Assembly (NCBI RefSeq): GCF_003664995.1
Contig: NZ_JFHL01000029.1
Span: 186,001 to 250,000 of the forward strand
DNA: 64,000 nucleotides
From: Mesotoga sp. BH458_6_3_2_1
Lineage (GTDB): Bacteria; Thermotogota; Thermotogae; Petrotogales; Kosmotogaceae
Direction: 5' to 3'
The translations under genes were made by a program, and so were the position numbers. Below are positions 51,289 through 59,109 of this stretch, in pieces; positions within the stretch are counted from its first letter, which is position 1; every line of letters begins with the position of its first letter. The notes under the pieces were generated by a model. It was not told the origin of the DNA. It worked only from the letters and a program-made list of their open reading frames with translations, and made no database searches.

Positions 51289-52278
51289 TTGAAAAGGATC
51301 AACATCGTCTATCTTTTTTTGGTTGCCTTAACAACTATTGCTATCTCTGCAACTTATCTGAATTTCAAAGGTGATTACACTGCAATAACGGCTGTTCCAA
51401 GTCTCGTTAGAAGAGGTGAGTCTTTCTCTGTTTCAGTACCTAGTTCGAATTATGAGAGGCCAATTCTCTCATACGTTAGAGGCGCTACTCTTGAACGGTT
51501 CTCAAGTGAAAGTAACTCTTCAGTCTTTACTTTTCGTGCTGATGACGAAGATGCAGTGATAGTTATTTCATTCTCGGGGCTCTTTAGAGCTCGTAAGAGT
51601 CTTTCCCTGGATTTCGAAGAGTTTATCGATAGTGATTCTGACGGCTTTCCTGACAAACTGGTCCTGGATTTAGAAGACGCCGAAAACTTCAGAGCATGGT
51701 TCGTGAACATTTCAGCCTATCAGGTCATTGAGTTTTCAAAAAGATGGAGCGATGAAGAAAGAGATTGTAGTGGATTGATAAGATTTGCAGCCAGAGAGGC
51801 TCTCAAAAATCACAAAGAGGAATGGTTCTTGGAGACTGCAATCGATTATGAACTCTGGCACGAGAAAACCGGTATTGACCTTCGAGCGATTCCGGATGTA
51901 AAAAAATACAACTATCCGGATATTCCCATACTCAAAGGGAAGATTTTCTTAAGTAATACCGGGGAGTTCACTTACTTCGCCGATGCATATAACCTAGTAC
52001 GTAGTAGTATGATATTTAAGGGCAGGGATCTCAGCGTCGCAAGGCCAGGAGACATAATCTTTTTTCACCACCCCTCTCCATCAACTTTTCACTCGATGAT
52101 ATACACTGGTGATGGGCTGATCTATCATACCGGACCCCTTTCCGAAAAAGATTCTGGTGTTCTGAAGCTCTGGAGAATGGAAGATTATCTGAGAACAATG
52201 CCTTATCAGTGGTTACCGATACATAATAACGAAAACTATCTCGGGGTATACGCTTTCAAGTTTCTACCCCGGCAATAA
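51289..52278 (+). CDS. DUF1175 (YfaT-like) exported protein
   Basis: A 329-residue exported protein with signal peptide ([20 protein letters not shown]). The C-terminal 190 residues match DUF1175: [13 protein letters not shown] with a candidate nucleophile Cys, then [11 protein letters not shown] and [16 protein letters not shown] with candidate His. This is the layout of an NlpC/P60-like Cys peptidase or amidase; enzymatic activity is inferred. In E. coli the yfaT gene neighbours yfaS, an alpha-2-macroglobulin, as here. TTG 51289 follows gaggggag. It lies 15 bases before the macroglobulin gene. Confidence 0.85.
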
Positions 52279-52293
52279 TGGAGGGTGAACGCG

Positions 52294-57320: not shown

Positions 57321-57321
57321 A

Positions 57322-59109
57322 TTGAGTGAAGGACCGTTTATTGAGTGGGATCTAGCAAAGCTCTATTCTTCATCGGATGATCCTGCCCTGATTAACGACC
57401 TGCGGTACGTGATCTTGAAAAAGGACGAACTGATGAAGGAATTCAAGGGAAGAATCGCAGCCGAAAGTATAGAAGCGTGCGAACTAAGGCTGGTTTTTGA
57501 AAAAATCGAAGAGGTAATGAGTAAATTCGCAAAGCCGTCAATGTTCGCATATTTGAGTCACTCAGTAACACCGGCCTTACCGACAATCCAGAAGCTGATC
57601 CGCAAGATCGACGATCTTGAGTCGCAGCTTGAAAGCGACCTCCTCTTTCTTAAACTGGAACTGTCGAAAGTCTCCGAAAATTACTTCTCAGTGTTGTTGG
57701 ATTCACCAGAGTTAGCAAATTACTGCCATTATCTCGAGCTCATCCGTACTAATCGAGTTCATCTGCTCAGCGAATCGGAAGAAAAGATGCTTACTCTGAA
57801 AGAACTGACGGGGAAGAGAGCCCTGCTTAATCTCTACGATGAATTTACCTCAAGCTTCATATATAGATTGAAAATCGGCGAAGGCGAAGATGAGAAAAAC
57901 TTTACGGAAAGCGAAGTCGAGACTATGAGAAGGGAAGAGGATCCCGAATTGAGAAGGAAGGCGTTTGTCAGTCTTTTCAAGAAATCAGAGGAAAACAGCA
58001 TCGTCTTGACCAATGTTTACAACTCTCTCGCGAAGGATTGGGACTTGGAAGCAGCCAAGAGAGGTTATTCTTCTCCAATCTCTATGAGGAATCGAGAGAA
58101 CGAAATCCCGGATGGGGCAGTGCAGTCTCTAGTCGATGTAACTACGAATGGGTACGCTCTTGTGCAGGATTACTACCGACTCAAGGCAAGGATTCTGAAT
58201 AAGGAATCGCTTCTCCATAGTGATATTTATGCACCGATTGGCGATTTCAAAGATCTTTTCAGCTGGCAGGAAGCAAAGAGCATGATCCTCGAGGTAACAG
58301 GAAATTTCGATCCACGACTAAAAAGAACAATCGCCGAATTCTTTGAAGGAAACTTCATACATGGATCAATCATGCCGGGCAAAAGAAGTGGAGCTTATTG
58401 TTCATATGCATCACCGGAAATTCATCCGTACGTTCTCTTGAATTTTGGAGGCAAGATGAATGACGTCCTGACGTTAGCTCACGAGCTGGGTCATGGTCTC
58501 CATGCAGTGCTGTCCTCGAAGCAGACTATGTTGAACTACGAGACTCCTCTCACTATGGCAGAGACTGCATCTATCTTCTCAGAAATGCTGATGACCGACC
58601 ATCTACTAAACACAACTTCAGGAAGAGAGGAAAAGATCTCCTTCATTACCGGTAGAATCGAGGAGATATTTGCGACTACTGCAAGGCAGAATATGTTTAC
58701 GAGATTCGAAATAGAGGCCCACAAAAGAATATCGAGCGAATATCTCTCATTTGAGGAACTTGGAGAGCTATATTTTGACGAACTGAAGCATATGTTTGGT
58801 GAGACGATCGATTTTCTTCCCGAGAGTAAATATGAATGGGCACGGATACCACATTTCTTTCACACTCCATTTTATTGTTATGCATACAACTTCGCTCAGC
58901 TATTAGTAATTTCACTGTACAGGAAGTACCTTGAGGATGGAGATGTTTTCAAGAGAAAGTATGTGGCCTTGCTCGAGAGCGGTGGATCTGATTCGCCGGA
59001 AATTCTCTTGGGAAAAGCCGGAATAGACATCTCTAGTCCTCGTTTCTGGGAAAATGGAATCGACTTCATTCAGGAGAACTTTCTGGATAGACTGAGGGCA
59101 ATGATTTAG
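57322..59109 (+). CDS. M3 family oligoendopeptidase F-like peptidase
   Basis: About 595 residues of the PepF/thimet oligopeptidase family, cytoplasmic, degrading peptides of modest length. The zinc site LTLAHELGHGLHAVL (HExxH) lies near residue 387, with the third ligand Glu in TMAETASIFSEMLM. The N-terminus has the family WDLAKLYSS. TTG 57322 lies about ten bases after AAGGAGGT; ATG 57298 is upstream of that site. It follows the HExxH gene without a gap, ending a four-gene cluster. Confidence 0.9.
   Translation: MSEGPFIEWDLAKLYSSSDDPALINDLRYVILKKDELMKEFKGRIAAESIEACELRLVFEKIEEVMSKFAKPSMFAYLSHSVTPALPTIQKLIRKIDDLESQLESDLLFLKLELSKVSENYFSVLLDSPELANYCHYLELIRTNRVHLLSESEEKMLTLKELTGKRALLNLYDEFTSSFIYRLKIGEGEDEKNFTESEVETMRREEDPELRRKAFVSLFKKSEENSIVLTNVYNSLAKDWDLEAAKRGYSSPISMRNRENEIPDGAVQSLVDVTTNGYALVQDYYRLKARILNKESLLHSDIYAPIGDFKDLFSWQEAKSMILEVTGNFDPRLKRTIAEFFEGNFIHGSIMPGKRSGAYCSYASPEIHPYVLLNFGGKMNDVLTLAHELGHGLHAVLSSKQTMLNYETPLTMAETASIFSEMLMTDHLLNTTSGREEKISFITGRIEEIFATTARQNMFTRFEIEAHKRISSEYLSFEELGELYFDELKHMFGETIDFLPESKYEWARIPHFFHTPFYCYAYNFAQLLVISLYRKYLEDGDVFKRKYVALLESGGSDSPEILLGKAGIDISSPRFWENGIDFIQENFLDRLRAMI

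What the first reader, a model, noticed from the sequence alone, without database searches (positions are those of the whole stretch)
51289..59109. Alpha-2-macroglobulin operon with a translationally coupled exported HExxH protease
DUF1175, a thioester macroglobulin, a 182-residue secreted HExxH protein overlapping it by ATGA, and an M3 oligopeptidase form one tight cluster. DUF1175 next to a macroglobulin is known from E. coli yfaT-yfaS. A small dedicated secreted zinc peptidase made in coupling with a protease trap is not an arrangement I recognise. It could cleave the bait to arm or test the trap, process trapped proteases, or be kept in check by it. The M3 enzyme could then clear peptides.
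Basis: partly seen in the sequence, partly recalled or inferred. Interest (0 to 1): 0.65.

Follow-up and report, generated by a model that had tools for sequence, protein, structure and literature searches.

The report
Macroglobulin operon with hidden zinc peptidase
This locus encodes a bacterial protease trap made together with a small secreted zinc-peptidase-like protein, and comparison across several phyla shows that this partner is a conserved third member of the trap system, probably matching an unrecognised domain at the end of the E. coli protein YfaQ.

Summary
In detail: DUF1175, a CxEQ thioester macroglobulin (A2M), a 182-aa exported HExxH protein overlapping it by ATGA, and an M3 peptidase. 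The HExxH gene is not strain-specific. Orthologs occur in 56 of 103 Thermotogota genomes. DUF1175, A2M and HExxH occur together in 54 of the 60 genomes that have any of them (A2M-HExxH Fisher p = 6e-23), including genomes where they are unlinked. HExxH is intact in 54/54 proteins at about 20% identity. In other phyla (Acidobacteriota, Atribacteria, WOR-3, Spirochaetota) the same domain sits downstream of DUF1175-A2M, alone or fused to a penicillin-binding transpeptidase and SpoIID. In Proteobacteria the equivalent position is the C-terminus of YfaQ/MagE, whose conserved HEYLH is not noted in the papers I could search. Thermotogota lack nearly all other Yfa/Mag parts, so HExxH is the third core component. 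The M3 gene is a neighbour in this genus only. The mechanism is unproven: most likely an accessory peptidase that processes or clears the macroglobulin (magE deletion alters MagD forms), or else a wall peptidase. All Thermotogota A2Ms keep the thioester, so the published split "mag operon = no thioester" does not hold.

The parts
51289..52278 (+). DUF1175 protein (YfaT/MagC relative): N-terminal signal/anchor segment, NlpC/P60-like C-terminal domain with conserved DCS Cys and His
   Evidence: Pfam PF06672 E 3e-53, NlpC/P60 sub-threshold; DC[AS] and HxM in 134 of 134 DUF1175 ORFs other than one N-terminal fragment; SD GAGGGGAGA before the TTG start
52285..56775 (+). Secreted thioester alpha-2-macroglobulin, 1496 aa, with CVEQ thioester motif (PYGCVEQT)
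   Evidence: Pfam MG2, A2M, TED, bMG10, bait region; CxEQ in 53 of 53 Thermotogota A2Ms of 1000 aa or more
56772..57320 (+). Exported gluzincin-like HExxH protein, 182 aa; H97, E98, H101 and probable third ligand E115; overlaps the A2M stop by ATGA
   Evidence: 54 orthologs all keep HExxH; A1 invariant columns H97 E98 H101 E115 G116; AF2 pLDDT 92.6; overlap conserved
56772..56775 (+). ATGA overlap of A2M stop and HExxH start (probable translational coupling; no SD)
57322..59109 (+). M3-family oligoendopeptidase (ORF listing start 57298; probable start TTG 57322). A neighbour only; judged not part of the module
   Evidence: TIGR02290 E 2.5e-164; adjacent only in 7 of 10 genomes of the genus
59143..59164 (+). 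Terminator-like hairpin with T tail after the M3 gene (weak: no enrichment over shuffles)

Best explanation
The locus encodes the minimal form of the DUF1175-type macroglobulin system: a periplasmic thioester A2M protease trap, a DUF1175 NlpC/P60-like protein, and a small exported zinc-peptidase-like (gluzincin) protein. The last is the stand-alone form of a domain that other phyla fuse behind a PBP-like transpeptidase and SpoIID, and that very probably forms the C-terminus of E. coli YfaQ / P. aeruginosa MagE. Proposed mechanism: A2M is exported and captures an invading protease when its bait is cut. The HExxH protein, made in fixed proportion by translational coupling, acts on the macroglobulin pathway as a dedicated accessory peptidase, cutting A2M for maturation or clearing cleaved, protease-loaded A2M. 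DUF1175 holds or works at the wall. Shown here: gene content, conservation, co-occurrence, positional equivalence. Inferred: zinc binding, catalysis, substrate, compartment. The module description is about 0.9 likely; the A2M-directed role about 0.4.
For: Co-occurrence in 103 Thermotogota: A2M 57, DUF1175 57, HExxH 56, all three 54. Exceptions are contig ends (G022, G030, G055, G061, G096) or an apparent deletion (G089). The genes are co-retained where unlinked: three separate loci in G034-G036, HExxH apart in G005-7 and G101-102. Motif invariance 54/54. The same domain is downstream of DUF1175-A2M in Acidobacteriota, Atribacteria, WOR-3 and Spirochaetota, profile-profile prob 99.5, E 1.5e-22. 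Thermotogota have no DUF2300 or DUF2138, SpoIID in 12/103 (not in this genome), DUF2135 only as 3 marginal hits, so HExxH is what remains with A2M and DUF1175. The YfaQ C-terminal HE[YF]xH is in 29 of 31 candidate ORFs (the other two look out of frame or frameshifted), with nearly the same order of secondary structure elements. Delta-magE changes MagD forms and amount (PMC5764988).
Against: No biochemical data. The link to YfaQ by sequence is weak (hhalign prob 26, E 7e-4; best HMM hit E 1e-5 in a set of 31 sequences) and rests largely on position and structure order. Two relatives lost the second His (L124 HEVCL, L144 HELLL). Two non-Thermotogota loci lack the gene (L143, L151). MagE did not bind MagD stably (PMC5764988). 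Fusion to transpeptidase and SpoIID points to the wall instead. Foldseek against PDB found nothing significant.
Confidence: 0.5

Rival explanations
1. The HExxH protein is a cell-wall peptidase (peptidoglycan or wall-bound proteins). The operon is a breach-repair kit in which A2M traps the intruding protease while DUF1175, transpeptidase, SpoIID and HExxH remodel or mend the wall.
For: Fusion or adjacency to PBP-type transpeptidase and SpoIID in Acidobacteriota, WOR-3 and Spirochaetota; N-terminal PBP/beta-lactamase fold in YfaQ; delta-yfaQ cells are wider and cluster with mepK, mepS and nlpI deletions (PMC12282094); type I A2M pairs with pbpC; DUF1175 is NlpC/P60-like (PMC10318531).
Against: In Thermotogota and Atribacteria the transpeptidase and SpoIID are not with the module but HExxH stays with A2M; gluzincins are usually protein peptidases (general knowledge).
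Confidence: 0.3
2. The domain is mainly a scaffold or specificity subunit; catalysis is dispensable.
For: Two natural variants without the second His that still neighbour thioester A2Ms (L124, L144).
Against: HExxH and a downstream acidic ligand are kept in nearly all other members across phyla at about 20% identity.
Confidence: 0.1
3. The peptidase is a potentially self-harmful secreted protease kept in check, or tested, by the coupled trap.
For: Fixed stoichiometry suggested by the ATGA overlap.
Against: In several lineages the gene is unlinked from A2M, so coupling is not required; no other sign of a toxin-immunity logic.
Confidence: 0.07
4. Four-gene system in which the M3 oligopeptidase clears peptides.
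For: Tight spacing and a terminator-like hairpin only after the M3 gene.
Against: M3 follows HExxH in only 7 of 10 genomes of the genus and was found beside it nowhere else; it has its own SD; no signal peptide is apparent in the sequence.
Confidence: 0.04
5. Chance neighbour.
For: None beyond short intergenic spacing in these genomes.
Against: Co-occurrence p = 6e-23 (not phylogeny-corrected), joint absence within genera g4 and g9, co-retention without linkage, recurrence in other phyla.
Confidence: 0.01

Closest known systems
yfaA-yfaT-yfaS-yfaQ-yfaP (E. coli) / magABCDEF (P. aeruginosa), the 'type II' macroglobulin operon
   Same: DUF1175 gene beside A2M; an HExxH domain encoded directly downstream (YfaQ/MagE C-terminus, E. 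coli residues 520-524)
   Different: Here the A2M has the thioester; HExxH is a separate small protein; no DUF2138, DUF2300 or DUF2135 partner, transpeptidase or SpoIID part
yfhM-pbpC, 'type I' bacterial A2M
   Same: CxEQ thioester A2M
   Different: No pbpC neighbour; has DUF1175 and HExxH partners, which yfhM lacks
Peptidase_MA-type gluzincins (PF13485, SprT-like, M61; selecase/minigluzincins)
   Same: HExxH with downstream Glu in EG, zincin-like order of strands and helices; weak hits to SprT-like, Peptidase_MA_2, DA1-like and selecase MJ1213
   Different: Below every curated threshold; no significant Foldseek match; own conserved EF...TG.PY...Q signature

Membership tests
DUF1175-type (yfa/mag) macroglobulin operon | DUF1175 gene associated with an A2M gene | tested here: met
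DUF1175-type (yfa/mag) macroglobulin operon | A2M lacks the CxEQ thioester (published definition of type II, PMC5764988) | tested here: not met
   CVEQ present; 53 of 53 Thermotogota, 24 of 24 other non-proteobacterial and 26 of 30 proteobacterial DUF1175-linked A2Ms have CxEQ
DUF1175-type (yfa/mag) macroglobulin operon | DUF2138 (MagB/YfaA), DUF2300 (MagE/YfaQ) and DUF2135 (YfaP) partners | tested here: not met
   0, 0 and 3 marginal of 103 Thermotogota genomes; none in this genome
Type I A2M (yfhM-pbpC) | Thioester and adjacent pbpC | tested here: not met
   Thioester met, pbpC neighbour absent
Gluzincin metallopeptidase | HExxH plus downstream Glu ligand | tested here: met
   54/54 HExxH; E115 invariant in A1; one Asp, and one truncated, among the 54
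Gluzincin metallopeptidase | Zincin fold | tested here: inconclusive
   Confident AF2 model with strands, active-site helix and glutamate helix, but no significant Foldseek match
Gluzincin metallopeptidase | Zinc binding and peptidase activity | not testable with these tools
   needs purified protein
Peptidase_MA_2 (PF13485) | Score above Pfam gathering threshold | tested here: not met
   best E 0.048 among 28 members
YfaQ/MagE C-terminal domain homology | Significant sequence or profile similarity | tested here: inconclusive
   hhalign prob 26, E 7e-4, against prob 7 for the M3 control; HMM E 1e-5 for the best YfaQ; nearly the same secondary structure order

The most novel reading that the evidence does not exclude
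A zinc peptidase is a general, previously unrecognised third core component of DUF1175-type macroglobulin systems from Thermotogota to E. coli (hidden in YfaQ/MagE), and it acts directly on the macroglobulin: a trap with its own dedicated processing or recycling protease.
Probability: 0.35. Interest if true: 0.8.

Novelty: new variant of a known kind. Interest (0 to 1): 0.62.

Why it matters
Bacterial macroglobulin operons have been studied for their protease trap, but the roles of most accessory genes are unknown. This work names one accessory domain as a probable metallopeptidase conserved across several phyla, gives the residues to mutate in E. coli YfaQ, offers a specific explanation for the magE deletion effect on MagD, and shows that the thioester-less state of some E. 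coli-type and Pseudomonas mag-type A2Ms is the exception. It makes a long-open question testable: how a single-use bacterial trap is matured or cleared.

Tried and rejected
M3 oligopeptidase as a system member: rejected for lack of conservation. Foldseek of the HExxH model against PDB and viral models gave no significant match. PADLOC gave nothing for any of the four proteins. Homology of the HExxH protein to Pfam DUF2300 by direct scan: no hit. The link of SpoIID with A2M inside Thermotogota: absent. A literature search for macroglobulin plus Thermotoga maritima plus thioester found no papers in the held library; subscription papers were not searchable, so prior notice of the HExxH motif in YfaQ cannot be excluded.

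Full report
Observation. The four genes are present at the stated positions. The window lies in a Thermotogota genome (contig G000:C29); relatives titled Kosmotogaceae and gene content suggest a Mesotoga-like organism (inference). The A2M has PYGCVEQT and macroglobulin domains from MG2 to bMG10. The HExxH protein starts at an ATG that overlaps the A2M stop (ATGA) and has no Shine-Dalgarno sequence, whereas the M3 gene has AAGGAGG and probably starts at TTG 57322.

Conservation in the phylum. A single-sequence search found orthologs in 36 of 103 Thermotogota genomes and a profile search in 59 at E 0.01, 56 of them strong. DUF1175 and A2M are each in 57. All three occur together in 54, any of them in 60. 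The six discordant genomes are explained by contigs ending in the module (G022, G030, G055, G061, G096) or, in G089, by a shortened A2M joined to a shortened DUF1175 with the intervening gene missing. The Fisher p-values are not corrected for phylogeny, but genera g4 and g9 contain species that lack all three beside species that have them, and in G034, G035 and G036 the three genes lie at three separate loci and are still all present.

Residues. In 28 aligned proteins, down to about 20% identity, the only invariant columns are H97, E98, H101, E115 and G116. All 54 proteins keep HExxH; the downstream Glu is Asp once and missing in one truncated protein. AF2 gives pLDDT 92.6 with the order helix, strand, helix, strand, strand, active-site helix, glutamate helix. 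Foldseek gives no significant match; its weak metallopeptidase hits include M61, SPRTN, ZMPSTE24 and HtpX. A profile search of PDB sequences gives selecase MJ1213 at E 0.38. I read it as a divergent gluzincin; zinc and activity are not shown.

Other phyla. A genome-collection scan with DUF1175 returned 80 loci. Outside Thermotogota and Proteobacteria, loci with enough sequence downstream of A2M nearly all carry the domain: Atribacteria (221 aa, overlapping the A2M end), WOR-3 (203 aa), Spirochaetota (217 aa), and many Acidobacteriota, where it is usually the C-terminal part of 850-1000 aa proteins. Exceptions are L143 and L151. Pfam shows that the Acidobacteriota protein is transpeptidase + SpoIID + HExxH, and that WOR-3 and Spirochaetota have these as separate consecutive genes. 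Profile-profile comparison of Thermotogota with these gives prob 99.5, E 1.5e-22 over 130 columns, against prob 7 for an M3 HExxH control.

E. coli and Pseudomonas. YfaQ ends in DRLDLTHEYLHLAFDGYPTGLDENYIETL, HEYLH at residues 520-524. HE[YF]xH is present in 29 of 31 candidate YfaQ ORFs; the other two (the second L171 ORF, and L185) look out of frame or frameshifted. In alignment A4 H515, E516, H519 and E531 are invariant. An AF2 model of a Pseudomonas YfaQ (mean pLDDT 83) has a PBP/beta-lactamase fold at the N-terminus and a C-terminus with helix, strand, strand, strand, active-site helix, glutamate helix, matching the HExxH model except for one short helix. Direct sequence similarity is weak, so homology is probable rather than proven; position and domain order are the strongest arguments. 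A 2025 paper describes YfaQ as transpeptidase-like plus SpoIID-like and does not mention zinc, metallo-, HExxH or macroglobulin in its main text (PMC12282094).

Core of the system. Thermotogota have no DUF2300 or DUF2138, only marginal DUF2135 hits in three genomes, and SpoIID in 12 genomes, mostly ones without A2M. Of the parts known from the yfa/mag operons, only DUF1175, A2M and HExxH are kept as a set. DUF1175 keeps a Cys (DC[AS]) and a His (HxM) in 134 of 134 ORFs apart from one fragment, which sits uneasily with its description as inactive (PMC10318531).

Thioester. CxEQ is present in 53/53 Thermotogota, 24/24 other non-proteobacterial and 26/30 proteobacterial DUF1175-linked A2Ms. The published statement that the mag-operon type lacks the thioester (PMC5764988) therefore applies only to some Proteobacteria. 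These samples are not even across taxa.

Mechanism. In P. aeruginosa, deletion of magE alters the amount of MagD and yields higher-mass forms; the authors guessed at signal-peptide processing or chaperoning and found no stable MagE-MagD complex (PMC5764988). A zinc peptidase domain in MagE would give this a direct explanation. The alternative, wall remodelling, is supported by the fused wall enzymes and the delta-yfaQ phenotype. I favour action on the macroglobulin at about 0.4 over the wall at about 0.3, because HExxH stays with A2M where the wall enzymes are lost.

M3. It follows HExxH only in part of this genus and is treated as a neighbour.

Noticed in passing
L097 (G092, 6465-10523): A second A2M paralog (1352 aa, thioester intact) without a HExxH or DUF1175 neighbour in that stretch.
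   Followed up: no
L091 / L108 (Marinitoga lauensis): A2M broken into four ORFs while the adjacent HExxH and DUF1175 frames remain open; possibly an early decay stage or sequencing error.
   Followed up: no
L124:16593-17240 and L144:6253-9102: HExxH-domain relatives that lost the second histidine (HEVCL, HELLL) beside thioester A2Ms; possible natural pseudo-peptidases or MAG errors.
   Followed up: partly
L109, L110, L111, L113, L114, L136: DUF1175 genes in contigs titled Chlorobiota, Armatimonadetes, Cloacimonetes, KSB1 and unnamed bacteria without a detected A2M nearby; L114 has a 1102-aa secreted protein next to it.
   Followed up: no
A4 / L166:15262-16893: YfaQ/MagE keeps SxxK (S58, K61), an SC motif (106-107) and KT (193-194), as an active penicillin-binding transpeptidase would.
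   Followed up: partly
window 50617-51096 (-): Small SnoaL-like putative lipoprotein (LTSGC lipobox-like) divergent from the module.
   Followed up: no
window 48620-49975 and 50106-50507: dnaA, then a small FMN-binding-domain membrane protein, upstream of the module.
   Followed up: no
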